64,000 nucleotides of DNA, taken from assembly GCF_016595235.1 (NCBI RefSeq), contig NZ_JAENHL010000006.1:62001-126000 (forward strand). The letters are read 5' to 3'. Both the position numbers and the translations under genes were made by a program. This document shows, in pieces, positions 13,754 to 41,406 of the stretch (position 1 is its first letter; each line of letters starts with the position of its first letter). The notes under the pieces were generated by a model. It was not told the origin of the DNA, did no database searches, and saw nothing but the letters and a program-made list of their open reading frames with translations. The DNA comes from Taklimakanibacter albus. GTDB taxonomy: Bacteria; Pseudomonadota; Alphaproteobacteria; Rhizobiales; Aestuariivirgaceae.

Positions 13754-13771
13754 GATATTGACTTCATATTC
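13754..13771 (+). promoter_or_regulatory. Shared regulon site A, upstream of hyuB operon
   Basis: GATATTGACTTCATATTC at 13754-13771, 81 bp before the hyuB start. The centre is a TGA-CT-TCA dyad flanked by ATAT/TATT, and it contains a TTGACT -35-like hexamer reading toward hyuB. Near-identical copies are at 29183, 39286 and 41389, each before an operon of the central island. The 267-bp gap from mtnA holds nothing else recognisable. Confidence 0.75.
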
Positions 13772-13852
13772 ATTTTACAGTCTGTTTTCGCTGCGGACGA
13801 GGCTGATGGCTGCTGCCCGTAATGCCTCAGTCTGATCGAGGAGAAGCTCCCT

Positions 13853-15664
13853 ATGGCGCGTTCGGCCAAACCTTCACGCAAACCCAAGCGGCGGGCGCAA
13901 TTCGACCCGATCCTGCTTGCGGTGCTGTCCAGCCGGTTCGAGTCGATTATCCGCGAGATGACGAACACGGTGATGAAGGCGAGCCGGTCCAGCGTCATCA
14001 AGAATGCGCGCGACATGTCCTGTGGAATCCTGACCTATGACCACCGGCTGGTCTCGGTCGAGGAGGCCTTGCCGATCCACGTGAATGCACTCGAGCTCAC
14101 CACCAAGCCCATCACGGAGCTGTTCGACGACATCAAGGAAGGCGACGCCTTCCTGAACAACAGCCCGTTCTACGGCGTCACCCACCATGCCGATCTGACT
14201 TTGTCGGTACCGGTGTTCTTCGAGGGAACGCCGCTCTTCTGGACGCTGTCGCGCTCGCATCACGCCGATATCGGAGCGCCGGAGCCCTCCACCTATCTGC
14301 CTTTCGCCGCTTCCATCTACCAGGAAGGCGTCCACTTTCCTTGCGTCCGCATCCAGGAGAATTTCAAGGACAAGCAGGACCTGCTGCGCATCGGCTTCCA
14401 GAAGATCAGGGTCAGCAACATCTGGCATGGCGACTATCGCGCCCAGGTCGGCGCCTGCCGCATCGGCGAGCGCCGCCTGAAGGAGCTCGTCGCCCGATAT
14501 GGCGTCGCCACGATCCGCGATTTCATCGAGGCCTGGATGGATTATGGCGAGCGCCGCGCCATTGCCGCCATCAAGCGCCTGCCTGCCGGCACTTATGTTT
14601 ATGAAGTGCGGCACGATCCCGTGGCCGGCGTCGCGGACGAGGGCGTACCGATCAAGGCCAAGGTCACCGTTGATCCCAAGAAGGGCCTGGTGACCGTCGA
14701 TGTGCGCGACAATCAGGATTGCGTGCCGGGCGGCCTCAATTTGTCGGAAGCCTGCGCGGTCGCCTCCTGCCGCATCGGCGTCTATTACAATCTGGAAGCG
14801 AGCGTGCCGCATAATGAGGGCAGCTCAAGCCGCATCGTGCCGCTCTTGCGCGACGGCTGCGTGGTCGGTCGCCCCAAGCATCCGACCGGCACCTCCTGCG
14901 CCACGAGCAATGTCAATGAACGCCTCGCCAATGCGGTGCAATGCGCTTTCTCCGAAATGGGCGAGCCCTATGGCATGGCCGAGGGCGGCGGCAATTTCTC
15001 GGCGGCGCTTGGCGTCATTTCGGGCGTCGACAGAAGGCGCGCCGAGCATGTCGAATATATCACCCAACTGATGCTGGCGCTGTCGGGTGGCCCGGCCAAT
15101 CACGGTCATGACGGCTGGCTGACTTATGAATGCTCGGTCGGCAACGGCATCATGGTGACCGACTCCGTCGAGGTCGATGAGGCGACCTATCCGGTTCTCG
15201 TCGAGGAGCGGCGCATCTGCGAGGACAGCATGGGCTTCGGCCAATGGAACGGCGCGCCGGCGGTACGCGGTTTCTACCGCTCGCTCACCGGCGACATGAC
15301 GCTCTATGTCTGCGGCGACGGTGGAACATTTCCGGCCAAGGGCGTGCTCGGCGGTGCGGCCGGCGCGTCCTGCGGCACATGGCGGCGCGCCAGGACCGGC
15401 ACGGTCGAGCGGCTCGCCGATTTCTTCAGCGGCACGATCGCCGACGGCGAGGCCGTTGGCTACCGCTCCTGCGCCGGCGGCGGCTATGGCTCGCCGCGCC
15501 GGCGTGACCCGGAACGGGTCGCCGAGGACGTCAACCGCAAATGGCTGAGCGTTGCCGCGGCACGCGATGTCTTCGGTGTTTCGGTGCGGCTGAACAGCAA
15601 CGGCGTCGATTACGAGGTCGATGCCGAGGCGACTTCAAGTCTGCGCGCCGCCGCTGGCGGATAG
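13853..15664 (+). CDS. Hydantoinase B/oxoprolinase family subunit
   Basis: A 603-residue protein of the HyuB family (also acetone/acetophenone carboxylase alpha-type and the C-terminal half of 5-oxoprolinase). FDPILLAVLSSRFESIIREM opens the domain, DAFLNNSPFYGVTHHADLTL (about residues 100-120) and LRIGFQKIRVSNIWHGDYRAQ follow, and GGGNFSAALGVISGVD and CAGGGYGSP lie further on. With HyuA it would act as an ATP-dependent cyclic-amide (hydantoin, oxoproline) hydrolase or a related carboxylase. It is the first gene after site A, and its HyuA partner is six genes downstream. GGAGAAG precedes the ATG. Confidence 0.85.
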   Translation: MARSAKPSRKPKRRAQFDPILLAVLSSRFESIIREMTNTVMKASRSSVIKNARDMSCGILTYDHRLVSVEEALPIHVNALELTTKPITELFDDIKEGDAFLNNSPFYGVTHHADLTLSVPVFFEGTPLFWTLSRSHHADIGAPEPSTYLPFAASIYQEGVHFPCVRIQENFKDKQDLLRIGFQKIRVSNIWHGDYRAQVGACRIGERRLKELVARYGVATIRDFIEAWMDYGERRAIAAIKRLPAGTYVYEVRHDPVAGVADEGVPIKAKVTVDPKKGLVTVDVRDNQDCVPGGLNLSEACAVASCRIGVYYNLEASVPHNEGSSSRIVPLLRDGCVVGRPKHPTGTSCATSNVNERLANAVQCAFSEMGEPYGMAEGGGNFSAALGVISGVDRRRAEHVEYITQLMLALSGGPANHGHDGWLTYECSVGNGIMVTDSVEVDEATYPVLVEERRICEDSMGFGQWNGAPAVRGFYRSLTGDMTLYVCGDGGTFPAKGVLGGAAGASCGTWRRARTGTVERLADFFSGTIADGEAVGYRSCAGGGYGSPRRRDPERVAEDVNRKWLSVAAARDVFGVSVRLNSNGVDYEVDAEATSSLRAAAGG

Positions 15665-15711
15665 CGGACGGCGCGAACGACATAAAACGAAAACAAAACA
15701 GGGGAAGAAAA

Positions 15712-16896
15712 ATGGAAGGACATCGATTACAACGCTTAGCCGCAGGATTGTTCGCTGCCGCGAGCCTCATGGCCACCGGCGTGGCCCGGGCCGAGGAGCC
15801 GATCGTGATCGGCGCGGCGATCGCCCAGAGCGGCATTATCGCGCCCTATGACGACGGGCCCGCCAAGGCTATGGAGATCGCTGCCGAGGAGATCAACGCC
15901 AAGGGCGGACTGCTCGGGCGGCCGCTCAAGATCATCTATTCCGACACCAAGTCCGACATCGCCTATGGCGCAACGGCGGCGCAGGACGTCATCGACAAGG
16001 GCGCCAACATGGTCGTGGTGACCTGCGACTACGACTATGGCAGCGCCGCCGCGTCGGTCGCCGACGGCGCCGGCCTGATCGCCTTCTCGACCTGCGCCGG
16101 CGATCCGAAATTCGGCCCCTCGGGCATCGGTCCGAACGCCTTCACCATGGCGACGGGTGCTCCCGGCCAGGCGGTGGCGATCACCGAATGGGCCTACGAC
16201 AAGATGGGCTGGCGCAGCGGCTATCTGCTGCTCGACACCACCATCGCCTTCGATGCCAGCTTCGCCGACTTCTTCACCCGCCGCTGGGTCGAGCTTGCCG
16301 GCCCCGAGGGACTGGCCGGCAAGGACACGTTCGGCGGCGAGGACCCGCAGATCGCCAGCCAGATCACGCGCATCAAGGCACTGCCGAAGCAGCCCGACTT
16401 CATCGTGCTCGCCTCCTTCCCGCCGGGCGGAGCGAGCGCCCTGCGCCAGCTGCGCGCTGCCGGCATCAACCAGCCTATCCTTGCCTCCGAATCCTGGGAC
16501 GGCGATTACTGGCTCGATGCCGTTCCCAATCTCAGCGACTTCTACTTCGTGACCTATGGCTCGGTCTTCGGCAACGACACGCGGCCGGCCGTCGTCGACT
16601 TCATGAGCAAGTTCGAGAAGAAATTCGGCCAGCGGCCGGTCACCTCGCATGCGCTCACCGGCTACAGCGTCATCCAGGGCTGGGCCAAGGCGGTCGAACA
16701 GGCCGGAACGCTCGAAGCGGGCAAGGTGCGCGAGAAGCTGGAAGTCTTTGTCGACGAGCCGCTGCTCGCCGGCCCGACGACCTTCACCAAGGATAGCCAT
16801 ATCAACATGCAGCGTGACCTGATCCTGCTCGAGGTCAAGGGCGGCAAGACCGGCAATGTCGTCGGCATCGTCAAGGCGAAGCAGATGCCGAAATAA
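15712..16896 (+). CDS. Branched-chain-type ABC transporter substrate-binding protein
   Basis: A 394-residue periplasmic binding protein (Peripla_BP_6, LivK/amide type). Signal peptide LQRLAAGLFAAASLMATGVARA is followed by PIVIGAAIAQSGIIAPYDDG and EINAKGGLLGRPLKIIYSD, the standard opening. The start ATG 15712 is chosen because GGGGAAG lies 4 bases upstream and a signal peptide follows; the frame extends upstream but without a signal. It feeds the LivFGHM-type genes that follow. The ligand could be an amide or hydantoin, given the flanking hyuB and hyuA (inference). Confidence 0.88.
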   Translation: MEGHRLQRLAAGLFAAASLMATGVARAEEPIVIGAAIAQSGIIAPYDDGPAKAMEIAAEEINAKGGLLGRPLKIIYSDTKSDIAYGATAAQDVIDKGANMVVVTCDYDYGSAAASVADGAGLIAFSTCAGDPKFGPSGIGPNAFTMATGAPGQAVAITEWAYDKMGWRSGYLLLDTTIAFDASFADFFTRRWVELAGPEGLAGKDTFGGEDPQIASQITRIKALPKQPDFIVLASFPPGGASALRQLRAAGINQPILASESWDGDYWLDAVPNLSDFYFVTYGSVFGNDTRPAVVDFMSKFEKKFGQRPVTSHALTGYSVIQGWAKAVEQAGTLEAGKVREKLEVFVDEPLLAGPTTFTKDSHINMQRDLILLEVKGGKTGNVVGIVKAKQMPK

Positions 16897-16918
16897 GCCA
16901 TCTGCGGCGAGTGGCGTC

Positions 16919-17689
16919 ATGATGATCCAACCGGACAGCGGCGGCGCGGACGCCTCCGCGGCAAGCCTGGAAGTCGACGGCGTGGTCGTCGATTTCCAGG
17001 GCCTGCGGGCGATAGAGGATGTCAGCCTCACTTTGCGACCGGGAGAGATTCTCGGCCTCATCGGCCCGAATGGCGCCGGCAAGACGACCTTGATCAACGT
17101 GCTCACCGGCTTTCAGGCGGTGACGCAGGGCAGCGTCCGTCTGGGTGGCGTCGATATCGCCGGCTGGAAGCCGCATGAGCGCAGCCGGCGTGGCCTGGTG
17201 CGCACCTTTCAGAGTGTTCTGCCCTTCGCCGGGCTGACCGCGCTGGAGAATGTCGAGGCGGGCGGCGTCGCGATCGGGCTTGTCCGCGGCGAGGCCCGCG
17301 CCGAAGCTGTCCGCATATTGAGCGAGATGGGTCTCGCCCATGCGGCGAACCGCAAGGCCGGCACGCTGCCCTTCGGCGAGGAGCGCCGCGTCGGTATTGC
17401 CCGCGCCATCGCCATGCGGCCCCGCTTTCTCCTCATGGACGAGCCGGCGGCCGGCTTGAACGATGCCGAATGCCGCGACCTTCAGACGATCGTGCGCGGC
17501 ATATGCGTGTCGCTCAGCTGCGGTGTCCTGTTCATCGAGCACCGCATGTCGATGGTGTTCGAGCTGTGCCACCGCATCCAGGTGCTGCAGCTCGGCCGGA
17601 CGCTGGCGTTGGGCCCGACCGATGCCATCCGCGCTGACCCCAAGGTGCGCAAGGCCTATCTCGGCGAAGACGAGGTGTCGCCGTGCTGA
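16919..17689 (+). CDS. ABC transporter ATP-binding protein, LivG type
   Basis: A cytoplasmic ATPase of about 256 residues. Walker A GPNGAGKTTLINVLTGF is at about residues 50-66, the signature segment is FGEERRVGIARAIA (a variant of the usual LSGG), and Walker B LLMDEPAAGLND follows. The signature differs from the consensus LSGGQ but this LPFGEERRV form is usual in LivG proteins. The start is taken as ATG 16919; 16922 is equally possible. It overlaps the next gene by 7 bases. Confidence 0.87.
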   Translation: MMIQPDSGGADASAASLEVDGVVVDFQGLRAIEDVSLTLRPGEILGLIGPNGAGKTTLINVLTGFQAVTQGSVRLGGVDIAGWKPHERSRRGLVRTFQSVLPFAGLTALENVEAGGVAIGLVRGEARAEAVRILSEMGLAHAANRKAGTLPFGEERRVGIARAIAMRPRFLLMDEPAAGLNDAECRDLQTIVRGICVSLSCGVLFIEHRMSMVFELCHRIQVLQLGRTLALGPTDAIRADPKVRKAYLGEDEVSPC

Positions 17690-18402
17690 AGATCCGCGAC
17701 CTGCATGTCAGCTACGGCAATATCGCCGCCTTGCGCGGTATCTCGCTCGATGTCGGCAAAAGCGAGATCGTCGCCGTGATCGGGCCCAACGGTGCCGGCA
17801 AGTCGACGTTGCTGCTCGCCATTGCCGGCGTGGTGCGCGCGCGCGCCGGCTCAGTCGAATTCGATGGCAGGGCAATCACCGGCCAGCAGCCGGAAGCCCT
17901 GGTCACGACCGGCCTGTCGCTTGTGCCGGAAGGCCGCCACATTTTCGGCTCGCTCTCCGTCGCCGAGAATCTCAGACTCGGCGCGACGGTGAGGCGCGAC
18001 CGGCAGGAGGTCGCCCGCGACATCGACCGCGTGCTCGCCATGTTCCCGATATTGCGTGAGCGCTACCGGCAGCGTGCCAACAAGCTGTCGGGGGGCGAGC
18101 AGCAGATGCTGGCGATCGGCCGCGCCATGCTGGCGCGGCCACGGCTGCTTCTGCTCGACGAGCCCTCGCTGGGACTGGCGCCGTTGATCGTGGCACAGAT
18201 CTACGAGGCCGTTCGCGCCTTGCGTGACCAGGGGGTGACGGCGCTCATCGTCGAGCAGAATGTCGGACGCGCGCTGTCCGCTGCCGACCGCACCTATGTG
18301 CTGAGCTCGGGCGTCATTGCCATGAGCGGGAAATCGGCCGAGTTCGCCGGCAATGCCGCCTTTGATGCCGCCTATTTCGGTGTCGCCGAGGCGGCGCGAT
18401 GA
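17683..18402 (+). CDS. ABC transporter ATP-binding protein, LivF type
   Basis: A 239-residue ATPase with Walker A GPNGAGKSTLLLAIAG (about residues 35-50), signature KLSGGEQQMLAIGRAML (about 128-145) and Walker B LLLLDEPSLGLAP. The GTG start at 17683 overlaps the LivG stop. It pairs with LivG to power the LivH/LivM channel. The order F after G and before H and M departs from the common HMGF order but is seen in other amide-type systems. Confidence 0.9.
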   Translation: MLKIRDLHVSYGNIAALRGISLDVGKSEIVAVIGPNGAGKSTLLLAIAGVVRARAGSVEFDGRAITGQQPEALVTTGLSLVPEGRHIFGSLSVAENLRLGATVRRDRQEVARDIDRVLAMFPILRERYRQRANKLSGGEQQMLAIGRAMLARPRLLLLDEPSLGLAPLIVAQIYEAVRALRDQGVTALIVEQNVGRALSAADRTYVLSSGVIAMSGKSAEFAGNAAFDAAYFGVAEAAR

Positions 18403-19280
18403 TCGTCCTGCAGAATCTCATCGACGCCGTAAGCCTCGGCGCCGTCTATGCGCTCGCCGCGCTCGGCATCGGCCTCATCTTCAGCGTCATGCGCCTGATC
18501 AACTTCGCGCATGGCGAATTGATCATGGTCGGCGGTTTCACCCTCTACACACTGGCCGGTCAGCCGCTTCTGGTGATGATCCTGGCGGCGCTCCTGACCA
18601 GCACGGTGCTGGCGCTCGGCATGGAGCGCGTCGCCTTCCGGACCCTGCGCAAGGCCAGCCCTGCGACATTGCTGATCTCCTCCTTCGCCGTCTCCTACCT
18701 CATCCAGCATATTGTGCTCCTGGCCTTCGGATCACGCGCGATGGGTGTAGCCTTCCTGCCTGAGCTCGGCACCGCCATCGATCTCGGCGGCTTGCGCATT
18801 CCGCTGCTGCAGCTCGTCACCATCGCCGTGACTCTTGTCTTGATGGCCGGGCTTGTCGCCTTCTTCCGGTTGTCCGAGACCGGACTGCAGATGCGCGCCG
18901 CGGCGGAGGATTTCACCATGGCGCGCCTCGTCGGCGTCAAGGCCAATCGCGTGATCGCTTTCGCCTTTGCGATATCGGGTGTGCTGGCCAGCATAGTGTC
19001 TTTCTATCTGGTGGCGCAGACCGGCAGCGTCTCCTACAAGATGGGCGTGAGCATGGTTCTGATCGCCTTCGTGTCCTCGGTCATCGGCGGCATGGGCTCG
19101 ATCGCCGGCGCCGCTCTCGGCGGCTTCCTGGTTGGCATCGTTTCGGTCTCGCTCCAGGCCTATCTGCCGGTCGATTTGCGTCCCTATCGCGACGCCTTCG
19201 TATTCCTGCTGTTCGTGCTCTTTCTTTTCTGGCGTCCGGACGGGCTGCTCGCCAGCCGCGCCGACCGGGACAGGGTGTAG
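18399..19280 (+). CDS. Branched-chain-type ABC permease, LivH type
   Basis: A 293-residue inner-membrane permease with about eight hydrophobic segments. IGLIFSVMRLINFAHGELIM (about residues 25-44) is the LivH hallmark, and MRAAAEDFTMARLVGVKANR is the cytoplasmic coupling loop. SVIGGMGSIAGAALGGFLVG closes the family pattern. It overlaps the upstream ATPase by 4 bases. Confidence 0.9.
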   Translation: MIVLQNLIDAVSLGAVYALAALGIGLIFSVMRLINFAHGELIMVGGFTLYTLAGQPLLVMILAALLTSTVLALGMERVAFRTLRKASPATLLISSFAVSYLIQHIVLLAFGSRAMGVAFLPELGTAIDLGGLRIPLLQLVTIAVTLVLMAGLVAFFRLSETGLQMRAAAEDFTMARLVGVKANRVIAFAFAISGVLASIVSFYLVAQTGSVSYKMGVSMVLIAFVSSVIGGMGSIAGAALGGFLVGIVSVSLQAYLPVDLRPYRDAFVFLLFVLFLFWRPDGLLASRADRDRV

Positions 19281-20332
19281 TGGCCATGGTCGAAAACTCC
19301 CTGTTCCGTCCATTGCAGACCGCGCTGGTCCTGATCCTTGCGCTCATTGCCGTGGCGCTCTGCGCGAGCATCGCGCCGCCGGCTCTGCAGCGCACTGTCA
19401 TCGAGGCGTTGATCAAGCTGACCGTGGTGGTCGGCCTGTTCATCTTCGTCGGCCAGTCCGGCGTGTTCTCCTTCGGCCATGTCGCCTTCATGGCGATCGG
19501 CGGTTATATGTCGGCGATCCTGACCCTGGCACCGGCGCGCAAGGCCACGCTGCTCGATCTGCCGGGGGCGATCGAGGCGCTGCAGCTGCCCTGGCCATTG
19601 GCGCTGGTGGCGGTCATCGTCGCCGTTGGTGTCCTCGCGACGGTGGTCGGCTGGCCCTTCTGCCGCCTGCGCGGCATCGCGCTGCCGATGGCGACATTCG
19701 CGCTGCTCATCATCACTTATGTCGTGGCTTCCAACTGGCAGCAGGTGACCGGCGGCCGTCAGGCGCTGGTCGGCCTGCCGCGTTATGTCGGCCTGTGGAC
19801 GGCGTTCGGCGGCGCCGCTCTCGCCATCCTGGTCGCCGCGGGCTACGCCATGACGCGGCACGCGCTCATGCTGCGTTGCTCGCGCGAGAGCGAGGTCGCC
19901 GCCGCCGCGACCGGCATCGATGTGGAACGCGAGCGGCTGATCGCCTTCGTGCTCAGCGCCATGGTGGTGGCGGCGGGCGGCGTGCTGTTCAGTCATTTCA
20001 TCGGCACGATCACGGCCAGCACCTTCTATCTCGACCTGACCTTCGTGACGCTGACGATGCTCGTGGTGGGCGGCATGCGCAGCCTGACCGGCGCCTGCGC
20101 CGGCGTGGCGCTGGTTTCGCTCGTGTCGGAGCTTCTGCGCTCGGTCGAGCGCGGCGTAGCGATAGGCGACGTCACGATCGCGGCGCCGCCGGGACTGCAG
20201 GAAATCGTGCTTGCCGCGCTCCTCCTGGCCATTCTCGTTTTAAGGCCGGCCGGCCTCCTCGGCGATGCCGAAATCGGCTGGCCGTCCTTCCGGCGCGCTG
20301 CTCCAGCGACCGCAACTCGGCAACAGGGATAA
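19280..20332 (+). CDS. Branched-chain-type ABC permease, LivM type
   Basis: A 350-residue permease with about nine hydrophobic segments. LFIFVGQSGVFSFGHVAFMA (about residues 53-72) is the LivM counterpart of the LivH motif, and REXEVAAAATGIDVERERL (written here with X for S) is the cytoplasmic loop. The GTG start at 19280 overlaps the LivH stop by one base; ATG 19286 is an alternative. It completes the transporter and is followed 7 bases on by hyuA. Confidence 0.87.
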   Translation: MAMVENSLFRPLQTALVLILALIAVALCASIAPPALQRTVIEALIKLTVVVGLFIFVGQSGVFSFGHVAFMAIGGYMSAILTLAPARKATLLDLPGAIEALQLPWPLALVAVIVAVGVLATVVGWPFCRLRGIALPMATFALLIITYVVASNWQQVTGGRQALVGLPRYVGLWTAFGGAALAILVAAGYAMTRHALMLRCSRESEVAAAATGIDVERERLIAFVLSAMVVAAGGVLFSHFIGTITASTFYLDLTFVTLTMLVVGGMRSLTGACAGVALVSLVSELLRSVERGVAIGDVTIAAPPGLQEIVLAALLLAILVLRPAGLLGDAEIGWPSFRRAAPATATRQQG

Positions 20333-20339
20333 TCGGACA

Positions 20340-24910: not shown

Positions 24911-24914
<4 letters not shown>
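24021..24914 (-). CDS. Oligopeptide-type ABC permease (DppC-like)
   Basis: A 297-residue permease. The N-terminal WLVFRRNPLAMIGLAIVALL is the DppC cytoplasmic leader plus first membrane helix, PPGAQHWLGTDELGRDILAR is the family-specific periplasmic motif, and the EAA loop ARIARAETLTVRNADYVKVA is at about residues 195-214. Start ATG 24914 overlaps the DppB stop; a long upstream extension of the frame to 25172 is an antisense shadow of DppB. Confidence 0.9.
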
Positions 24915-25981
<1,067 letters not shown>

Positions 25982-26002
25982 CGATGAAGGGGTTTTCCCG
26001 GT

Positions 26003-29182: not shown

Positions 29183-29200
29183 GAATATGATGTCAATATT
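29183..29200 (-). promoter_or_regulatory. Shared regulon site B, upstream of M81/peptide importer operon
   Basis: On the minus strand AATATTGACATCATATTC, 63 bp before the M81 start, differing from the other copies at two positions. It keeps the TGA-NN-TCA core with TTGACA in the sense direction of the operon. It lies in the 116-bp gap after the GNAT stop at 29236. Confidence 0.7.
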
Positions 29201-29235
29201 AATTTCTGCCGAAATTTTATGCGCGGCCACGCGGC

Positions 29236-29703: not shown

Positions 29704-29706
29704 GGA

Positions 29707-32184: not shown

Positions 32185-32202
32185 AGGTGCGGCTTTCGTT
32201 TC

Positions 32203-33228: not shown

Positions 33229-33288
33229 GACATCCCCTTTCGTTTTGGATTGATGATCTGTCTTCACGCTCATCGCCCGCTCACTCCC

Positions 33289-34350
33289 TCAGTGGAGGGT
33301 GGGCGCTCCTCCTTCCTCCGGCAGCAGCCAGACGCATTCCGGATCCCACGACAGCCATACGGCCGATCCTTCGGCGAGACGGCGGCGCGCCCCGGCAATA
33401 TTCACGGTGAAGCTGCGGCTGCTGTCGGTGTCGACGATGTAGCGGGCGATCTCGCCCAGAAACACGACCTCACGGATCGTGCCGCGGACAAAGCCGCTAT
33501 CGGCATCGGCGCGAATATCCTCGGGGCGCAGCAGGCCGCAAACCTGCCGGCCCAGCCGGCCGGCGGAGGTGCGGCAGGGAAAGTCTCCGCTCGTGCCCCG
33601 GATTGCATTCGGCTGCTCCAGGCGGCCTTCGAGGAAATTGGCGAGACCGAGAAAGCCTGCGGCGAAGCGGGTCTTCGGACGGTGATAGAGCTCATCCGGC
33701 GTGCCGATCTGTTCGACCCGGCCATTGGCCAGGAGCACGATGTGATCCGAAAGCGACATCGCCTCTTCCTGATCGTGGGTGACCATGATGGTGGTGATGC
33801 CGAGGCTACGCTGCAGCGCCTTGATCTCGGAGCGCACTTCCTCGCGCAGCTTGCGGTCGAGGGCGGCGAGGGGTTCGTCGAGGAGCAGGATGTCCGGCTT
33901 GAAGACGATGGCGCGCGCCAGCGCCACGCGCTGCTGCTGCCCGCCCGACAGCTGATGCGGACGCCGTGACTCGAACCCGGTCAGGCGGACCAGCCGCAGC
34001 GCCTCGCCGACGCGCCGGCTGATGTCGGGTGCCGGCAGGTGGCGGACGCGCAGCGGGAAGGCGATATTGTCGAAGATCGACATATGCGGGAACAGCGCAT
34101 AGCTCTGGAACACCAGACCGACATTGCGCCGGGCGGCCGGAACATGGGTGATCTCCTGGCCGCCGAGCTCGATGCGGCCGGAGGAGGGCGCGGTGATGCC
34201 GGCGATGAGCGACAGCATCGTCGTCTTGCCGGAGCCGCTTGGTCCCAGGATGGTGGTGAAGGCGCCGGAACTGACTGAAAGCGAGATATCGCCGATCGCG
34301 GTCACCGATCCGTAGGCCTTGGAAACGCTGGTGAATGTTACATTCGTCAT
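33289..34350 (-). CDS. Spermidine/putrescine-type ABC ATP-binding protein (PotA-like)
   Basis: A 353-residue ATPase: Walker A GPSGSGKTTMLSLIAGI (about residues 36-52), signature HQLSGGQQQRVALARAI, Walker B ILLLDEPLAALDRKLREEVR, and a C-terminal TOBE-type regulatory domain (about 280-345). It precedes the binding protein in the operon by 60 bases, so the importer order is potA, SBP, potB, potC. Confidence 0.9.
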   Translation of the reverse strand: MTNVTFTSVSKAYGSVTAIGDISLSVSSGAFTTILGPSGSGKTTMLSLIAGITAPSSGRIELGGQEITHVPAARRNVGLVFQSYALFPHMSIFDNIAFPLRVRHLPAPDISRRVGEALRLVRLTGFESRRPHQLSGGQQQRVALARAIVFKPDILLLDEPLAALDRKLREEVRSEIKALQRSLGITTIMVTHDQEEAMSLSDHIVLLANGRVEQIGTPDELYHRPKTRFAAGFLGLANFLEGRLEQPNAIRGTSGDFPCRTSAGRLGRQVCGLLRPEDIRADADSGFVRGTIREVVFLGEIARYIVDTDSSRSFTVNIAGARRRLAEGSAVWLSWDPECVWLLPEEGGAPTLH

Positions 34351-34385
34351 GTCCGCTTCCTTCGCTTGGCGACGCTGTCGCCTGA

Positions 34386-35765
34386 TCAGGTGATCACCGG
34401 CCAGCGGCCGGGCGGCTTCAGTCCGGCGCGCGCCGCTGTCGCCGTCGCCGAACGCTGCGCGATCCGGTAGATTTCAGTCTCATCGAGCCGCGTCAGCCGG
34501 CCGTGCCGAACGATGATCTCGCCATTGCAGATCACCGTATCGACCGCCTTGGTGCGCGAGATCAAAGCGAGCTGCCGCACGATATCGACATTGGGCTGCG
34601 TGTCCGGCGGCTCGAATGTGCGGATCACGAGATCGGCACGCTTGCCGGGCTCGAGACTGCCGAGGTCGTCGCGCCCGATGGCGCGCGCACCCCCCAGCGT
34701 GAACATCTCCAGGATCTGCTCGGCGCACAGAAACTCGCCCCATTCCTTGCTGACGAGATAGGCGATCAAGCCGAGATCGCCGAAGGCCCAGGCCTTGGCG
34801 ATATCGGTGCCGAAGGCCACGGCGGTGCCGCGCCGGTGCAATGCGGGGAAGGCGCTGCGCCCGGTCTGCGAGATGGCGTAATACATGAAATTGCCGGGAT
34901 GCCAGACCAGCGTCATCCCGCTCGCGGCGACGGCCTCGATCTCGGCATCGTCCAGGATGTTCATATGCGTGAAGACGCTGTTCCTGCCGATCAGGCCCCG
35001 TTCGGCGAAATGTACCATCGCCGGCTTGCCGAAGCGTTGCCGGTCGTAGTCCGCTTCTCCCGTCGTCAGGCTCTGATGCTGGTGATAGACGACGCCTTCG
35101 CGCGCCGCGAGGTCCATCGCCTCGCGCATCAGCTCCTCGGACGCGCTGCCGGAGCCATAGAGCGCCACGTGACCGCGCGCCAGCGCATCGGGATCGCGGT
35201 TGCGCTTCAGCTGGCCGCCAAGTTCGCGGCGCGCCCGGGCGCCGTCGCAGGGCGCGCGTTGGATATCCGCGGCAAGCGGCTCGCCGCCGACGATGTCCCA
35301 GAGCATGCAGTCGGCCAGCGACGTGCGGATGCCGACCGCTGTGGCGGCCGTCGCCACCGCGTCGGGACAGAAGGTCGTGCCGGCATCGACGAAGCCGGTG
35401 AAGCCGTTGCGGGCGAGCTCGGCCGCGGCGAGCAGGGCGCTCGCATATTCGTCTTCATCGGTGATGGCATTCATCCAGCGGGCGAACACGCCGGTGCCGC
35501 CGCCGGGCTCGTCGGGAATCGAGCCGCGGCTCAGATGCAGGCCGGCATGGTAATGCCCATCGATAAAGCCGGGATGGACGATGCCGCCCCGGGCGTCGAT
35601 GCGGCGCGCTGCGGTCCAGTCCTTCTCGATGAGGCGCGTCGGCCCGATCGCCATGATGCGATTGCCGCTGATCGCGATGGCGCCGTCGGCCAGTATCTCG
35701 CGCTCGCGGTTCATGGTCAGCACGCAACCCGCGACAATCAGGAGATCGCAGTGCTGGGGGGCCAT
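34386..35765 (-). CDS. Amidohydrolase family protein (cytosine deaminase/TrzN-like)
   Basis: A 459-residue metal-dependent hydrolase with an N-terminal beta-sandwich (LLIVAGCVLTMNREREILAD) and a TIM barrel. IVHPGFIDGHYHAGLHL (about residues 60-77) gives the HxH metal pair, HQHQSLTTGEADYD and FTHMNILDD the next His residues, and AFGTDIAKAWAFGD the catalytic Asp. Members deaminate or dechlorinate heterocycles and guanidino-type compounds. In this operon it sits between the importer and acyl-CoA ligase genes and could open or deaminate the imported compound. The substrate is not predictable. Confidence 0.85.
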   Translation of the reverse strand: MAPQHCDLLIVAGCVLTMNREREILADGAIAISGNRIMAIGPTRLIEKDWTAARRIDARGGIVHPGFIDGHYHAGLHLSRGSIPDEPGGGTGVFARWMNAITDEDEYASALLAAAELARNGFTGFVDAGTTFCPDAVATAATAVGIRTSLADCMLWDIVGGEPLAADIQRAPCDGARARRELGGQLKRNRDPDALARGHVALYGSGSASEELMREAMDLAAREGVVYHQHQSLTTGEADYDRQRFGKPAMVHFAERGLIGRNSVFTHMNILDDAEIEAVAASGMTLVWHPGNFMYYAISQTGRSAFPALHRRGTAVAFGTDIAKAWAFGDLGLIAYLVSKEWGEFLCAEQILEMFTLGGARAIGRDDLGSLEPGKRADLVIRTFEPPDTQPNVDIVRQLALISRTKAVDTVICNGEIIVRHGRLTRLDETEIYRIAQRSATATAARAGLKPPGRWPVIT

Positions 35766-35770
35766 TGCCG

Positions 35771-37444
35771 TCAGGTCCCGATCTTGCCGGTTTCGCGGTC
35801 GAAGGCACCCTGCCGCAGATCGCTCTTTTCCTTGAGCAGACCCTGCTTATGGACGCGCATGGACGGCGTGCGCTCGAAATCCGTTGCGCGGAACTCGATG
35901 AAGCGCGGAATCTTGAAGGCGGCGAGATTGGCGCGGCAGAAGTCGATCACCGCTTCCGGCGTCACGGCCTCGCCCGGCTTGATCTGGATATAGGCCTTCA
36001 CTTCCTCGCCGCGCAGCTCGTCGGGAACCGGCAGGACGGCGGCATCGATGACCTGGGGATGCGAGCGCAATACACCTTCGACCTCGGCGGCCGAGATGTT
36101 TTCGCCGGACCGGCGGATGATCTCCTTCTTGCGGCCGACGAAATAGAGCAGGCCGCGCTCATCGCGGCGCGCCACGTCGCCCGAATGATACCAGCCGCCG
36201 CGATTGGCTTCCGCGGTCACTTCAGGCCGGTTGAGATACCCGGCATAGAGGTCGGGCCCGCCGACCAGGCACTCGCCGGCTTCTCCGGCGGGCACGTCCT
36301 TGTCGTCGTCATCGACCAGGCGGATGGTCACGCCGGGCGGCTCGACGCCCATCGTGCCGGTGCCGACGAGTTTGTCAGCGAGATGGTCGGGCACCCGGCT
36401 CATCACACCGCCTTCGGTGCTGCCATATTGATTGTGCCAGTGGAAGCCGTAGCGCTCGAGCATCTCGCGATGCAGCTCCTTGGGGAGGCCTGCATGAATG
36501 GCGAGGCGGATGCGGTGGTCGCGCTCGGCCGGACCAGGCTCGCCTTTCATGAGAAGGGCCGGGATCGAGGCGATCGACAGGATCTCGGTCGCGTCATAGG
36601 TGGTCACGACCTCCCAGAAGCGCGACACCGAGAAGCGGCGCATGGCCACCAGCGTGCCGCGCGAGGCGAGCGACGTGAGAAGCTGGATCGCCGGATCGGC
36701 ATAGTAGAAGGGCAGGCAGCAGAGCTGCCGGTCCTGCCAGCCGCGGCGGAAGAGTCTGAGATCGACGTCGATGACGCGCAGCCACCAGCCATGATGCAGC
36801 ATGCAGCCTTTCGGCGCGCCGGTGGTGCCGGATGTATAATAGACGGTGACGATGTCCTCGCGCTGGCATTGCGCGGTGGTGAAGTCGAGTGGCTCGGCGG
36901 CGCTCTCATAGGCCGCGAGACCATCCGGCTCCTCGCCATCGACCACGACGATATGCGCGAGCGCCGGCGCATTGCCGCGCACCGCCTCGATGATCGGCAA
37001 CTGCGGCTTGCCGACGATAGCCACCGTCGGCGCTGCGTCCGTCACGATATGGCCGGCATCATACTGCATGGCGCTCGGCGCGATCGAGACCATGGTGGCG
37101 CGGTTGGCGATGATGCCGAACAGCGCGATCATGAACTCGAGGCGATTGTCGAGCATCATCACCACGCGATCGCCCGGCTTCACCTTGTCGCTGAGATAGC
37201 CGGCGAAGCGCTGGCAGCGGTCGAGGAATTCGCGCCGGGCCATTACCGGGCCGTTCTCGATGATGATCGCCGGGCGTTCGGGATCCTCGAGGCAGCCCTT
37301 GGCGACGATCTCGATCACCGTCTGCTGCGGAACGGCGCTCCAGTCCGGGGCGACATTATGATGCCCGATCCAGGATTGGGGGCGCGCCGGCGCGCCGCTC
37401 GTGCCCAGTTCCAGACGTGCCGGGGCAATCTTGGGGCCGCTCAT
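35771..37444 (-). CDS. AMP-dependent acyl-CoA ligase
   Basis: A 557-residue ANL-superfamily ligase activating a carboxylic acid to its CoA thioester through an acyl-AMP. VYYTSGTTGAPKGCMLHHGW (about residues 200-220) is the AMP-binding P-loop, YGSTEGGVMS the A5 motif, and YHSGDVARRDERGLLYFVGR with KKEIIRRSGENISAAEVEGV the hinge and A10 region. ATG 37444 overlaps the MaoC stop by 4 bases; an upstream extension is an antisense shadow. It resembles crotonobetaine/carnitine-CoA ligase-like enzymes (CaiC type), but the substrate is unassigned. Confidence 0.88.
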   Translation of the reverse strand: MSGPKIAPARLELGTSGAPARPQSWIGHHNVAPDWSAVPQQTVIEIVAKGCLEDPERPAIIIENGPVMARREFLDRCQRFAGYLSDKVKPGDRVVMMLDNRLEFMIALFGIIANRATMVSIAPSAMQYDAGHIVTDAAPTVAIVGKPQLPIIEAVRGNAPALAHIVVVDGEEPDGLAAYESAAEPLDFTTAQCQREDIVTVYYTSGTTGAPKGCMLHHGWWLRVIDVDLRLFRRGWQDRQLCCLPFYYADPAIQLLTSLASRGTLVAMRRFSVSRFWEVVTTYDATEILSIASIPALLMKGEPGPAERDHRIRLAIHAGLPKELHREMLERYGFHWHNQYGSTEGGVMSRVPDHLADKLVGTGTMGVEPPGVTIRLVDDDDKDVPAGEAGECLVGGPDLYAGYLNRPEVTAEANRGGWYHSGDVARRDERGLLYFVGRKKEIIRRSGENISAAEVEGVLRSHPQVIDAAVLPVPDELRGEEVKAYIQIKPGEAVTPEAVIDFCRANLAAFKIPRFIEFRATDFERTPSMRVHKQGLLKEKSDLRQGAFDRETGKIGT

Positions 37445-38253
37445 GCCGCTATCTCCGCATAGCCATTCTTGACGACGACAGCGCCATCGCGGTCCGTGGC
37501 TTCGAAACCGATAACGCCGTCGGCGCCGATCCAGTGATCGACGGCGAGCGTCTGGCCTTGGGTGAGGAAGAGGGGGTGTGCGAAGCGGCAGCCGAGACGC
37601 TTCAAACGGGGCGTATCGCCGCGGCAATGGCGGTCGACGATGGCGCGCGCGGTGAAGGCCAGGGTGCACATGCCATGCACCAGCGGCGCCGGGAAGCCCT
37701 GCCTGGCGGCGGCGGCCGGATCGATCGTATAGGCGGAATAATCGCGCGCCGCGTCGGCATAACGGCGCGTCTGGTCCGGTGTGAGCGCGTAGCGTTCGGA
37801 GCTGACAGCGGTCTTGGCCGGAGCAGGGCGGGCGGGCGGAACCTCGCCCTCGCGGGCGGTGGCGGCCGCGCCCCGCACCAGGCAGGTGCTGTATTGGGTG
37901 CAGACGGGCTTGCCCTCATGTGTCTCGATGGCGGAGCGGATGATGTAGGTGAGGCCGGCGCGGGTGCCGCGCATGCCGATGAGCGTCGATGTGGTGAACA
38001 GTCTGAGCCCGGGCCGGATCGGGGCATGGAACACGAAATCATGCTCGCCATGCAGGACGAAGCCATTCGCCGCCTGGTCCAGCACCTCGACCATGCTCTG
38101 CATGACGGGGATATGCGCGAAGACCGGCGATGCGAACACGCCCGCCAGATGCTGTGGGTTCGTGTCGTCGACGGCACGTGCGAACTGCGCCAGCCGATGG
38201 CTGCTGGTGCGGAACTCCTCCGAGTCGCGGCTGAGGCCGATGGTAGCGCTCAT
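37441..38253 (-). CDS. Double-hotdog MaoC-like dehydratase
   Basis: A 270-residue protein with two hotdog domains. The N-terminal part (about residues 1-130) has FARAVDDTNPQHLAG and DFVFHAPIRPGLRLFTTSTL; the C-terminal part (about 150-270) has YADAARDYSAYTIDPAAAAR and FPAPLVHGMCTLAFTARAIV. In the second domain the usual GDxNPLH is changed to RDYSAYTID, so the catalytic His may be absent or supplied differently. It likely hydrates an enoyl-CoA or is a structural relative. It overlaps the SDR stop and the ligase start. Confidence 0.75.
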   Translation of the reverse strand: MSATIGLSRDSEEFRTSSHRLAQFARAVDDTNPQHLAGVFASPVFAHIPVMQSMVEVLDQAANGFVLHGEHDFVFHAPIRPGLRLFTTSTLIGMRGTRAGLTYIIRSAIETHEGKPVCTQYSTCLVRGAAATAREGEVPPARPAPAKTAVSSERYALTPDQTRRYADAARDYSAYTIDPAAAARQGFPAPLVHGMCTLAFTARAIVDRHCRGDTPRLKRLGCRFAHPLFLTQGQTLAVDHWIGADGVIGFEATDRDGAVVVKNGYAEIAA

Positions 38254-39152
38254 ACAGGCAGCCCCTCCACGAAATCGCCGAGCTTGGGCAGGTTCGGGAG
38301 CTGGCCGGCGAGTGCCTTATCGACATCTTCGATGGTCCAGCGTCCATCGGCCCGGACATCAACCGCGATGGCGCTCGGCGCGATGATGCCGATCCGGTTG
38401 CCATAGGCCTGGAACACCTGGCCGGTGGCCGGGCAGTCGGCGCGCGCGAGCCAGCAGATCAGCGGCGCGACATTGTCGGGCGAGAACGTGTCGAAGATGC
38501 CGGCGGGCGGCGGCTGCAGCGACGTTTCGATGCGTGTGCGCGCCGAGGGCGAGACCGCATTGGAGCGCACGCCATATTTGACGCCTTCAAGCGCCAAAGT
38601 GCGCGACAGGCCGACGACGGCGAGCTTCGCGGCGGCGTAATTTGCCTGGCCGAAGCTTCCGACAAGTCCGGCCACTGAGGTGGTATGGATGATCGAGGCT
38701 TTGACCTGGCGGCCGGCTTTCGTTTCCGAGCGCCAGTAATCCATGGCATGGCGCGCCGGCGCGGCATGGCCCTTCAAATGAACGCGGATCACCGCATCCC
38801 AGTCGTCTTCCGACATATTGGCGAACAGGCGGTCGCGCAGGATGCCGGCATTGTTGATCAGCACGTCGATGCGGCCGAAGCGCTTCACTGTGGTTTCGAT
38901 GAGCGCCTTGGCCTGCGCCCAGTCGGAGACGTCATGGCCCGAGGTGATCGCCTGGCCGCCGCTGGCGGTAATTTCGCCGGCCACCGATTGCGCCGCTGAG
39001 GGATCGAGCCCTTCGCCATGAAGGTCGCTGCCGAGATCGTTGACGACGACGCTGGCGCCGTGCTGGGCGAGCGCCAGGGCATAGGATCGCCCCAGTCCTC
39101 TGCCGCCGCCCGTAACCACCGCGACCCGGCCTTGCAAACACCCTGCTGTCAC
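38250..39152 (-). CDS. Short-chain dehydrogenase/reductase
   Basis: A 300-residue SDR. VAVVTGGGRGLGRSYALALA (about residues 9-28) is the TGxxxGxG cofactor motif, INNAGILRD follows, and the catalytic Ser (TTSVAG) and Tyr-Lys (NYAAAKLAV) are present. It resembles the hydroxyacyl-CoA dehydrogenase domain of peroxisomal multifunctional enzyme 2, which fits the MaoC hydratase next to it. GTG 39152 is chosen because GAGGGAG lies about 5 bases upstream; the longer frame to 39305 would run through regulon site C. It is the first gene of the ~10 kb leftward operon. Confidence 0.86.
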   Translation of the reverse strand: MTAGCLQGRVAVVTGGGRGLGRSYALALAQHGASVVVNDLGSDLHGEGLDPSAAQSVAGEITASGGQAITSGHDVSDWAQAKALIETTVKRFGRIDVLINNAGILRDRLFANMSEDDWDAVIRVHLKGHAAPARHAMDYWRSETKAGRQVKASIIHTTSVAGLVGSFGQANYAAAKLAVVGLSRTLALEGVKYGVRSNAVSPSARTRIETSLQPPPAGIFDTFSPDNVAPLICWLARADCPATGQVFQAYGNRIGIIAPSAIAVDVRADGRWTIEDVDKALAGQLPNLPKLGDFVEGLPV

Positions 39153-39285
39153 TGTCGCTCCCTCGATATCAGGATCACCGCTTTTAGGCGGGCGGACGAC
39201 CCGTCGGGGCCTCTTGTCTTCCCGCGATGCCGGTTTCGACACCACGCGGACCGTCCCCGCTTTCATTGACAGGAAAATAGAAAAT

Positions 39286-39303
39286 GAATATGAAGTCAAT
39301 ATC
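39286..39303 (-). promoter_or_regulatory. Shared regulon site C, between the SDR operon and the aminotransferase
   Basis: On the minus strand the core is GATATTGACTTCATATTC, identical to sites A and D, 133 bp before the SDR start and 69 bp before the divergent aminotransferase start. Identity with site A extends to 29 bases including flanking A- and T-rich sequence. TTGACT reads toward the SDR operon. Confidence 0.75.
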
Positions 39304-39372: not shown

Positions 39373-40596
39373 ATGGTGTCCGGTGCGGATTTTCCCGCCA
39401 GGCGGCCCGGCTTTGCCCGCTGGCTGTCGGCCAGCAACGACATCACCCAGCAATTCCTGGCGATCGGCGGCCGGCCGGACTTCATCAGCATGGCCGGCGG
39501 CTTGCCGGCGGCGGAGCTTTATCCGGCGGCGGCGATCGCCGAGGCCGCACAGAAGGCGCTGGCGCGCTGGGGCGCGACGGCGCTGGAATATGGTCCGGTG
39601 GAAGGGTTTCCGGCCTTGCGTCAGTTCATCGCTGAGCGCGTCGGGCGCCAGGCCGGCCGCAGCATCGGACCCGAGAATGTGTTGTTGACCGTCGGGGCGA
39701 TGCAGGCGCTCGATCTGATCGGCAAGGTGCTGATCGATCCGGGTGACCCGATCGTGGTGCAGTTTCCGACCTATGTCGGCGCCCTCGATGCCTGGCGCAT
39801 GCGCGCCCCGTCATACCGGCTGCTCGACTGGTCGCCTGACGCCGATTCGCAGGCGCTGCGTGGCGCGCAGTTCGTCTATACCGTGCCCAATTATTCCAAT
39901 CCGACCGGCGTCCTGGTGCCCACCGCGGCAAGACAGGCCCTGCTCGAGCGGGTGCTGGCCGCGGGTACCTGGCTGATCGAGGACGATCCCTATCTGCCGT
40001 TGCAGTATAGCGGCGCCGCCGGTCCCAGCATCCTGGAGCTGCACGGGCGGATGGCGCCCGAGGGGCCTTATGATGGGCCGGTCATCTATCTCGGCACGCT
40101 GTCGAAAAGCATCGTGCCGGGACTGCGCGTCGGCTGGGTGATCGCGCCCAGCGCGATGATCCAGGCGCTCGCCATCGCCAAGCAGTCCTCCGATCTCAGC
40201 AGCTCGATGCTGACCCAGGCGATTGCGCTCGAGCTTCTGGAGTCGGGCCATGAAGAGCAGCACGTGCCGACGATCATCCGCCATTATACAGAGCGTCGCG
40301 ATGCGTTATGCGCCGCGGCGCGGAGCGAGCTCGCGGAATGGTTCGACTGGGAGATTCCGCCGGGCGGCATGTTCGTATGGATGCGCCGGCGCGATCCCGC
40401 GATCGATACGGATGCGCTCTATCAATATGCCTTGCGGGAGAAAGTCGCCTTCGTGCCGGGCAGCGTCTTCGATCCGGCGGGCAAGCTCACTTCCGCGATG
40501 CGCGTCAATTTCAGCCGCAACGCGCCTTCGGTGCTGCAGGAGGGCGTGGCGCGTCTCGCCGCGGCGACACGGCATTATCTCAGGAAAAACAGCTGA
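39373..40596 (+). CDS. PLP-dependent aminotransferase (2-aminoadipate/MocR-type fold, no HTH)
   Basis: A 407-residue class I/II aminotransferase. ISMAGGLPAAELYP is the family opening, VPNYSNPTGV (about residues 174-183) holds the cofactor Asn, ending with IEDDPYLPLQY, and YLGTLSKSIVPGLRVGWVIA contains the PLP Lys (SK, about 245) and Arg. It resembles LysN/2-aminoadipate transaminases. ATG 39373 follows GGGAGGG by about 11 bases. It faces the SDR operon across site C and ends 4 bases before the TetR stop, so it probably belongs to the same regulon and handles the amino acid product. Confidence 0.86.
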   Translation: MVSGADFPARRPGFARWLSASNDITQQFLAIGGRPDFISMAGGLPAAELYPAAAIAEAAQKALARWGATALEYGPVEGFPALRQFIAERVGRQAGRSIGPENVLLTVGAMQALDLIGKVLIDPGDPIVVQFPTYVGALDAWRMRAPSYRLLDWSPDADSQALRGAQFVYTVPNYSNPTGVLVPTAARQALLERVLAAGTWLIEDDPYLPLQYSGAAGPSILELHGRMAPEGPYDGPVIYLGTLSKSIVPGLRVGWVIAPSAMIQALAIAKQSSDLSSSMLTQAIALELLESGHEEQHVPTIIRHYTERRDALCAAARSELAEWFDWEIPPGGMFVWMRRRDPAIDTDALYQYALREKVAFVPGSVFDPAGKLTSAMRVNFSRNAPSVLQEGVARLAAATRHYLRKNS

Positions 40597-40600
40597 GGCG

Positions 40601-41311
40601 TCAGCGCTTCGGCGGGTCCTTGCAATAGACGGCGCGGTACCACAGCGTCGAGAGCATCTGGGCGAGATCTTCCGCATGCGCCGGATCCTCGCCCTCGACC
40701 AGTGGGTTGCGGCTGACGATCACCGCATAGAGATAGTGGAAGACCATGGCTTCCAGCGCATGCGCGACAGCTTGCGGCGAGCCCGGCATGTTCTCCTTGT
40801 AATTGCCACGCCGTGTGATCGAGCGCGCCAGGTTTTCGATCCAGCGCAAATGCCGCGGCCGCCAGACTTCGCGGAATTCCGCCAGCTGGCTCTGCAACTG
40901 GACATGGCACTGCATGAGCCCGGGATTGACCATGTAGGCTGCGATGAAAAACCGGTTGGTGTTCAGGATCGCCTCATATTCGCCGGTGCCGCGGCCGACC
41001 TTGCGCGCCTGCTCATAGAGATATTCGACGAAATCCATCACCACTTCGATGGCGATCTCGTTCTTGTCGCGGTAATAGACATAGAAGGTGCCGAGCGCGA
41101 CGCTCGAATATTTGCAGATGTCCGAAACCTTGACGTCTTGATAGCCGATCTCCTCGAGCGCCTGGGCGGCGGCGACCTTGAGCCGGTATTTGGTGCGATC
41201 CCCCTTGGAGGCGAAAACGCGGGTGTCGAGGTCGGCCGCGAGATGATCGCCGTACCGTACCGCCCGCACGTCTTCCGTGGTCGATACGGGGGCCTTGGCG
41301 TGAGCTGGCAT
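40601..41311 (-). CDS. TetR-family transcriptional regulator (candidate regulator of the central island)
   Basis: A 236-residue TetR protein. The helix-turn-helix is at about residues 55-85 (VKVSDICKYSSVALGTFYVY), preceded by an unusually long N-terminal arm of about 45 residues. The C-terminal ligand domain is helical. GAGGAG lies 7 bases before ATG 41311. The gene is divergent from the thiolase-like operon with site D 77 bp upstream of its own start, so autoregulation fits. Being the only regulator gene in the island, it is the best candidate for the protein that binds sites A-D. Its ligand may be an acyl-CoA intermediate (inference). Confidence 0.88.
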   Translation of the reverse strand: MPAHAKAPVSTTEDVRAVRYGDHLAADLDTRVFASKGDRTKYRLKVAAAQALEEIGYQDVKVSDICKYSSVALGTFYVYYRDKNEIAIEVVMDFVEYLYEQARKVGRGTGEYEAILNTNRFFIAAYMVNPGLMQCHVQLQSQLAEFREVWRPRHLRWIENLARSITRRGNYKENMPGSPQAVAHALEAMVFHYLYAVIVSRNPLVEGEDPAHAEDLAQMLSTLWYRAVYCKDPPKR

Positions 41312-41388
41312 GGAATTCTCCTCAACGCGGCGATATCGCACCGGCCTCTCTATATCAACGCCAATGATAGCGCACTCCGGATAAAAAT

Positions 41389-41406
41389 GATATTGACTTC
41401 ATATTC
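41389..41406 (+). promoter_or_regulatory. Shared regulon site D, between tetR and the thiolase-like operon
   Basis: GATATTGACTTCATATTC, identical in the 18-bp core to sites A and C. It lies 77 bp before the TetR start and 192 bp before the thiolase-like start, in a 287-bp divergent gap. TATGAT follows 14 bases after TTGACT, too close for a standard promoter, so exact -35/-10 use is unclear. Confidence 0.75.

What the first reader, a model, noticed from the sequence alone, without database searches (positions are those of the whole stretch)
13754..41406. Four copies of an 18-bp AT-rich operator define an undescribed regulon
GATATTGACTTCATATTC occurs at 13754 (+), 39286 (-) and 41389 (+), with a two-base variant at 29183 (-). 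All four lie in intergenic gaps 63-192 bp before the first gene of an operon, and all read in the operon direction. Copies A and C match over 29 bases. The centre is a TGA-NN-TCA dyad and each copy carries TTGACT/A. In a GC-rich genome, four such AT-rich matches in 28 kb are very unlikely by chance.
Basis: seen in the sequence. Interest (0 to 1): 0.85.

Follow-up and report, generated by a model that had tools for sequence, protein, structure and literature searches.

The report
TetR regulon with near-invariant 29-bp operator
Several bacteria share a rare set of breakdown and transport genes whose switches carry one almost unchanging 29-letter DNA tag, very probably the docking site of a single TetR-type repressor; it is a real and apparently undescribed control network, but of a well-known kind.

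Summary
In detail: three exact copies and one two-mismatch copy at the stated places, with one further match of at most two mismatches in the 7.17-Mb genome. The regulon reading is supported. TetR orthologues (60-75% identical) were found in 4 of 394 genomes of the M. ephedrae family, and all four carry the site at the same promoters: thiolase/tetR in 5 of 5 genomes (own included), SDR in 6 of 6, HyuB in 3 of 3 where found. Operator identity is 0.86-0.94, flanks 0.18-0.43. A matrix from 11 foreign sites scores the four window sites 46-61 bits; no unrelated place is among the top eight on either strand. The real element is about 29 bp and can be read as TGA-N3-TGA-N2-TCA-N3-TCA, long enough for two TetR dimers. 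Between SDR and the divergent aminotransferase it holds the -10 of a TTGACA-N17-TATGAA promoter in 5 of 5 genomes, pointing to repression by occlusion. In M. ephedrae a different peptide-transporter operon also has a site. TetR binding, repression and the effector (my guess: an acyl-CoA) are inferred, not shown. New member of a known kind.

The parts
13748..13776 (+). Operator A (29 bp; 18-mer core 13754-13771) before the HyuB-Liv-HyuA genes
   Evidence: 61.0 bits with a foreign-only matrix
29178..29206 (-). Operator B (core 29183-29200, two mismatches) before the M81-SBP5-Dpp genes
   Evidence: 46.3 bits
39281..39309 (-). Operator C (core 39286-39303) between the divergent SDR operon (-) and aminotransferase gene (+)
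   Evidence: 61.0 bits
41383..41411 (+). Operator D (core 41389-41406) between the divergent tetR (-) and thiolase operon (+)
   Evidence: 55.5 bits
40601..41311 (-). TetR-family regulator, predicted to bind the four operators
   Evidence: PF00440 E 4.3e-7; orthologues in 4 of 394 genomes of the M. ephedrae family; alignment A1
13853..22388 (+). Operon A (inferred from same-strand contiguous frames): HyuB, SBP6, LivG, LivF, LivH, LivM, HyuA
   Evidence: Pfam; NCBIfam
22403..29119 (-). Operon B (inferred): M81 peptidase, SBP5, DppB, DppC, DppD, OppF
   Evidence: Pfam
29236..39152 (-). Operon C (inferred): SDR, MaoC, acyl-CoA ligase, amidohydrolase, PotA-like ATPase, SBP8, two permeases, HadA-like and HadB-like pair, GNAT
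   Evidence: Pfam; NCBIfam
39373..40596 (+). Aminotransferase (like the C-terminal part of MocR proteins), divergent from operon C
41599..46221 (+). Operon D (inferred): thiolase, ChsH2-type OB protein, M20 deacylase, FAD oxidoreductase, RraA-like protein
39266..39294 (+). Predicted promoter of the aminotransferase, TTGACA-N17-TATGAA; its -10 (39289-39294) lies inside operator C
   Evidence: same spacing in 5 of 5 SDR sites that have the aminotransferase gene, not in the one (G400) that lacks it

Best explanation
The four elements are operators of the TetR-family regulator encoded at 40601-41311. It most likely binds each 29-bp site, perhaps as two dimers on overlapping TGA-N8-TCA pairs offset by 6 bp, and blocks RNA polymerase because the site overlaps promoter elements. 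It represses its own gene and at least four operons for uptake and CoA-dependent breakdown of an amide- or lactam-type compound. A pathway intermediate, most likely an acyl-CoA made by the ligase at 35771-37669, would release it. Shown: site positions, near-invariance, matching presence of regulator and sites, the site at the tetR promoter, overlap with promoter-like hexamers. Inferred: that TetR is the binder, two-dimer binding, repression rather than activation, effector and substrate.
For: Occurrence: in 394 genomes of the M. ephedrae family the tetR orthologue (E <= 1e-25) is in 4 and the core with W at position 10 and no mismatch in 5, the same 4 plus G490; plain hypergeometric 5e-9, not corrected for shared descent. 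In 385 genomes of the class only the own genome has a site with at most 1 mismatch and only it has a close orthologue. Position: tetR/thiolase gap in 5 of 5, SDR in 6 of 6, HyuB in 3 of 3 genomes where the gene was found in the DNA fetched. Footprint: operator identity 0.94, 0.90, 0.86 against 0.18-0.43 in flanks. Out-of-sample matrix: the four window sites at 46.3-61.0 bits; 50 Markov windows at most 12.5. TetR is the only one of three regulators near the sites (TetR, AsnC-type at 11853, HTH-cupin at 53420) with a homologue in the 12 related stretches compared. Promoter overlap: TTGACA-N17-TATGAA toward the aminotransferase in 5 of 5 sites that have that gene, and TTGACA-N16-TATGAT at the M. 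ephedrae transporter site. Recognition-helix columns 81-89 of TetR are invariant in 9 of 9. Closest solved folds: EthR, then KstR and FadR-type repressors.
Against: No binding data. G490 has the exact core at the SDR promoter but no tetR match in the whole-genome search (E <= 1e-25) or in the two contigs fetched; contig C685 ends about 400 bp past the aminotransferase, where tetR would lie, so absence cannot be judged. All 15 matrix sites belong to one inherited gene cluster, so orthologous promoters are not independent tests. Forward promoters of the SDR and thiolase operons show no consistent -10, so occlusion is weak there. Site B has no orthologous counterpart in the stretches compared. 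The palindrome is imperfect: 9 of 13 pairs on axis 9.0, 8 of 13 on axis 9.5. The conserved orientation could mean a built-in promoter.
Confidence: 0.78

Rival explanations
1. The element is the operator of a regulator encoded elsewhere, and tetR is merely one of its targets.
For: G490 carries the site without a detected tetR; no binding assay exists; regulators outside the fetched stretches were not compared.
Against: TetR is the only regulator recognised among the 32 window frames compared that recurs in the cluster of all four other tetR genomes, and the AsnC-type and HTH-cupin regulators of the window have no homologue there. Among genomes searched without a detected tetR, only G490 has the core without mismatch.
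Confidence: 0.1
2. The element is mainly a shared promoter (TTGAC-type -35), perhaps for an alternative sigma factor, not an operator.
For: All 15 matrix sites read in the operon direction; 14 of 15 cores hold TTGAC; the three HyuB sites fit (T/C/A)TGATA-N18-TACAGT, TAAAGT or TACAAT.
Against: No consistent -10 behind the SDR and thiolase sites; the M. ephedrae transporter site is reversed relative to its operon; 384 of 385 class genomes have no copy with at most 1 mismatch, whereas a sigma factor's promoters would be expected more widely; the conserved block is far longer than two hexamers.
Confidence: 0.08
3. TetR binds here but acts as an activator or dual regulator.
For: Conserved orientation relative to the operons; unclear forward promoters.
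Against: TetR-family proteins are mostly repressors (established knowledge); the site covers the -10 of the predicted aminotransferase and M. ephedrae transporter promoters.
Confidence: 0.12
4. Chance, or recent duplication of one AT-rich promoter segment.
For: The window copies are very alike; A and C match over 29 bases.
Against: Flanks of the copies are dissimilar and the block persists in genomes whose TetR has diverged to 60-75% identity; chance is excluded.
Confidence: 0.02

Closest known systems
TetR-family acyl-CoA-responsive catabolic repressors (KstR; FadR of Thermus and Sulfolobus)
   Same: TetR N-terminal domain; targets with acyl-CoA ligase, hydratase, SDR and thiolase genes; Foldseek lists KstR (3mnl, 5fmp), Tth FadR with acyl-CoA (3anp, 3ang) and SaFadR (6el2, 6en8).
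   Different: Different operator and gene set; effector untested.
EthR (mycobacterial TetR-family repressor)
   Same: Best Foldseek match (5mym_B, E 5.5e-5, TM 0.58 on the query, 17% identity); EthR_C hit just under its cut-off (26.3 of 27 bits).
   Different: Low identity; EthR acts on a divergent ethA promoter (recalled), here at four or more operons.
QacR/CprB type dimer-of-dimers operators (PMC4150764, passages seen)
   Same: Sites of 22-32 bp with two dimers; here 20-29 bp with two overlapping TGA-N8-TCA pairs.
   Different: Stoichiometry is not shown here.
Caprolactam cluster of Pseudomonas jessenii (PMC6061476, listing and passages seen)
   Same: HyuA/HyuB-type ATP-dependent amide hydrolase (CapA/CapB are the best NCBIfam hits), an aminotransferase, beta-oxidation-type genes.
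   Different: Scores far below the equivalog cut-offs (559 and 286 against 1000 bits); different aminotransferase class; different further genes.

Membership tests
TetR family of transcriptional regulators | N-terminal TetR helix-turn-helix domain (PF00440) | tested here: met
   E 4.3e-7, 30.1 bits against a cut-off of 24
TetR family of transcriptional regulators | All-helical fold with C-terminal ligand/dimer domain | tested here: met
   AlphaFold2 mean pLDDT 73.8, ten helices; best PDB matches are TetR-family proteins
TetR family of transcriptional regulators | Palindromic operator at its own promoter | tested here: inconclusive
   Site in the tetR/thiolase gap in 5 of 5 genomes, but the dyad is imperfect (9 or 8 of 13 pairs) and binding is not shown
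TetR family of transcriptional regulators | Specific DNA binding relieved by a ligand | not testable with these tools
   needs an assay
EthR subfamily | EthR_C domain (PF21313) above the gathering score | tested here: not met
   26.3 bits, cut-off 27
Dimer-of-dimers (QacR-type) operator | Two dimers bound to one site | not testable with these tools
   only length and repeat layout agree
Caprolactamase (CapA/CapB) | NCBIfam equivalog cut-off reached | tested here: not met
   559 and 286 bits against 1000
Microcystinase MlrC | NCBIfam cut-off reached | tested here: not met
   176 bits against 999

The most novel reading that the evidence does not exclude
A portable regulon: one rare TetR and one almost frozen 29-bp operator travel with a catabolic cluster between distant bacteria, stay coupled when the cluster is split (the HyuB operon lies on another contig of the draft genome G401), and are re-used by non-orthologous transporter-plus-peptidase operons (M81-Dpp in the window; Opp-M20 in M. 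ephedrae, site reversed and overlapping a near-consensus promoter, 37.8 bits). The operator would be bound by two dimers, and one site would silence two divergent promoters, covering the -10 of one and the -35 side of the other.
Probability: 0.4. Interest if true: 0.55.

Novelty: new member of a known kind. Interest (0 to 1): 0.42.

Why it matters
The site gives a high-information operator for an uncharacterised TetR, so its regulon can be read from sequence alone, and with it the gene set of an unknown catabolic pathway (HyuAB hydrolase, acyl-CoA ligase, three MaoC-type proteins, thiolase, deacylase, several transporters). The sites link operons that gene neighbourhood alone would not, such as the HyuB operon on another contig of G401 and the Opp-M20 operon of M. 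ephedrae. If binding is confirmed it would also be a useful repressor-operator pair for reporter work.

Tried and rejected
Promoter-only reading: the HyuB sites fit an N18 promoter, but SDR and thiolase sites show no consistent -10. A LysR-type T-N11-A box and an 11-bp direct repeat (ATATTGA-N4-ATATTCA) can also be drawn on the core. I preferred the TGA/TCA layout because its four triplets pair on axis 9.5 and because the linked regulator is TetR; yet the majority sequence pairs slightly better on axis 9.0 (9 of 13) than on 9.5 (8 of 13).

Viral contigs: 8 stretches hold the related pattern, all AT-rich (32-38% GC) and without the operator flanks: taken as chance. Plasmids: no TetR relative at E 1e-20; the thiolase has 123 records, all under 60% identity. 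Three distant TetRs (31-33% identity; G850, G974, G975) have no site with at most 3 mismatches in the 3.6-kb loci read.

The G490 C400 site (29.4 bits, before a FAD oxidoreductase-SBP5-permease set) was not counted, because L063 (G485), inside a 466-aa open frame and with an 18-mer that occurs in three further genomes, scores 30.0. L006 (own genome, 3 mismatches, 14.7 bits, longest open frame 50 aa) is unresolved. Naming the organism by 16S failed: no SSU rRNA match in the own genome (the same search rang in 9 of 14 control genomes). Caprolactam and microcystin as substrates were set aside on scores. Paper searches: none of four motif strings occurs in the held library; six terms on TetR, Mesorhizobium and thiolase gave 0; HyuAB/MlrC/thiolase terms gave only the caprolactam paper; caprolactamase with TetR gave 4 papers, of which I looked into one.

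Full report
OBSERVATION. In the whole 7.17-Mb genome the same search adds one 2-mismatch and four 3-mismatch places; the reversed control gives none. Those five score -0.4 to 14.7 bits on the 29-bp matrix of all 15 sites. Copies A and C share 29 bases.

SURROUNDINGS. Site A precedes HyuB-SBP6-LivGFHM-HyuA; site B an M81 peptidase and a Dpp-type transporter; site C lies between an SDR-MaoC-acyl-CoA ligase-amidohydrolase-PotA-like transporter-HadAB-like-GNAT set and a divergent aminotransferase; site D between tetR and a divergent thiolase-OB-M20-FAD oxidoreductase-RraA set. Operon limits are inferred from contiguous same-strand frames. HyuA/HyuB and the M81 protein resemble caprolactamase and MlrC but score far under the curated cut-offs.

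CONSERVATION. A scan of genome contigs for close TetR relatives, by short peptide patterns, found two: Mesorhizobium ephedrae (L024, 70%) and a Rhizobiaceae MAG (L023, 67%). Both hold the exact 18-mer beside tetR. Taxonomy now names the former Kumtagia ephedrae, Hyphomicrobiales, Alphaproteobacteria. Of 394 genomes drawn from its family, 4 have tetR at E <= 1e-25: G400 (M. ephedrae), G401 (the MAG), G589 and G689. In the window's order 1 of 397 genomes, its own, has tetR at E <= 1e-30, and in its genus 1 of 5, its own, has the site with at most 1 mismatch. All 394 handles are G400 or higher, while those of the order search (21 of 397 listed) were numbered before; from this I infer, without proof, that the window genome is of another order and that the cluster has moved horizontally.

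Whole-genome searches with up to 3 mismatches: G400 3 sites, all on C31; G401 3, two on C1 and one on C83; G589 4, two beside tetR and two 3-mismatch ones on C44; G689 8, three exact ones beside tetR and five 3-mismatch ones elsewhere, with one hit of the reversed control. The pattern with W at position 10 and up to 1 mismatch occurs in 11 of 394 genomes: without mismatch in 5 (the four tetR genomes and G490), with 1 mismatch only in 6 (G485, G518, G543, G606, G725, G765). Those six score -1.9 to 30.0 bits and lie in open frames of 419-683 aa; long frames are common in GC-rich DNA, so that is weak evidence of coding. In 385 genomes of the class the 20-mer with up to 2 mismatches occurs in 14; with up to 1 mismatch only in the own genome (reversed control one hit each in G1003 and G1049). 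Of those 385 only the own genome has a close TetR; three have relatives at 31-33%.

Fifteen sites were aligned: 4 window, 3 G689, 2 G589, 3 G401, 1 G490, 2 G400. Left out of the matrix before counting: the G400 transporter site and the G490 C400 site. By promoter: thiolase/tetR in 5 of 5 genomes with tetR, SDR in 6 of 6, HyuB in 3 of 3 in which HyuB was found in the DNA fetched; it was not found in the stretches of G589 and G400. Some cores vary, for example the G401 SDR and G589 thiolase sites with two mismatches each. Anchored, ungapped comparison gives operator identities of 0.94, 0.90 and 0.86 for the HyuB, SDR and thiolase groups against 0.18-0.43 for the flanks; MAFFT finds the same block (shifted a few bases for thiolase) at 0.94, 0.90 and 0.87, with best non-overlapping windows of 0.40-0.49. 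A matrix of the 11 non-window sites scores window sites A, B, C and D 61.0, 46.3, 61.0 and 55.5 bits. The other top-eight places on either strand are the same four sites read on the opposite strand or shifted (up to 14.4); 50 first-order Markov windows reach 12.5 at most. Leave-one-out scores of all 15 are 42.0-61.6.

ANATOMY AND MECHANISM. The consensus AAAAWTGATATTGACTTCATATTCATNTT contains TGA-TAT-TGA-CT-TCA-TAT-TCA: nested inverted repeats, or two overlapping TGA-N8-TCA pairs 6 bp apart. The dyad is imperfect. TetR proteins binding as two dimers use 22-32 bp, those binding as one dimer 15-17 bp (PMC4150764, passages). In the SDR/aminotransferase gap the opposite strand reads TTGACA-N17-TATGAA toward the aminotransferase in 5 of 5 genomes with that gene, its -10 being part of the operator. 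G400 shows no aminotransferase in the stretches compared and lacks that promoter match. In G400 a further site (37.8 bits) is reversed, lies 18 bp before the ATG of an ATPase-ATPase-SBP5-permease-permease-M20 set and overlaps TTGACA-N16-TATGAT. These overlaps favour repression by occlusion. Forward, the three HyuB sites fit (T/C/A)TGATA-N18-TACAGT, TAAAGT or TACAAT (the window one also); SDR and thiolase promoters remain unclear.

REGULATOR. The other four TetRs are 60-75% identical to the window protein in alignment A1; columns 81-89, the recognition-helix region, are invariant in 9 of 9, and 17 of 21 columns in 81-101. The model (mean pLDDT 73.8) is closest to EthR, then KstR and FadR-type repressors; phmmer against PDB lists 27 weak matches, among them AvaR1, a fatty acid metabolism regulator (3whb) and EthR. 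Of the window's regulators TetR, AsnC-type and HTH-cupin, only TetR has homologues in the 12 related stretches compared. From the folds and the ligase, hydratase, SDR and thiolase genes I infer an acyl-CoA effector; this is a guess at about even odds.

VERDICT. A real TetR-type regulon, not found in print in the searches, conserved in the other genomes found to hold the regulator; the kind of system is known.

Noticed in passing
L036:4873-4890 (G400 = M. ephedrae, contig C31:58872-58889): A reversed operator (37.8 bits) 18 bp before an Opp-M20 set that is not orthologous to window operon B, suggesting operator capture by a functionally similar operon.
   Followed up: partly
L069:5727-5744 (G490 contig C400): A weaker site (29.4 bits) before a FAD oxidoreductase-SBP5-permease set; no better than a likely chance hit in another genome (30.0).
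   Followed up: partly
L006 (G000:C6:985440-985457, -): Own-genome 3-mismatch copy (14.7 bits) in a stretch whose longest open frame is 50 aa; possibly a weak extra site.
   Followed up: no
window 53420-57144: A second set with an HTH-cupin regulator, an AMP-binding enzyme and a Liv-type ATPase, with no copy of the operator.
   Followed up: no
window 8608-13584: Arginase-family gene, SBP3-type transporter genes, AsnC-type regulator and a methylthioribose-phosphate isomerase just before operator A; the regulator and the isomerase have no homologue in the 12 related stretches compared.
   Followed up: partly
G000 (whole genome): No bacterial SSU rRNA match in a 98%-complete genome of 9 contigs; it may be a metagenome assembly or have stretches withheld.
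   Followed up: no
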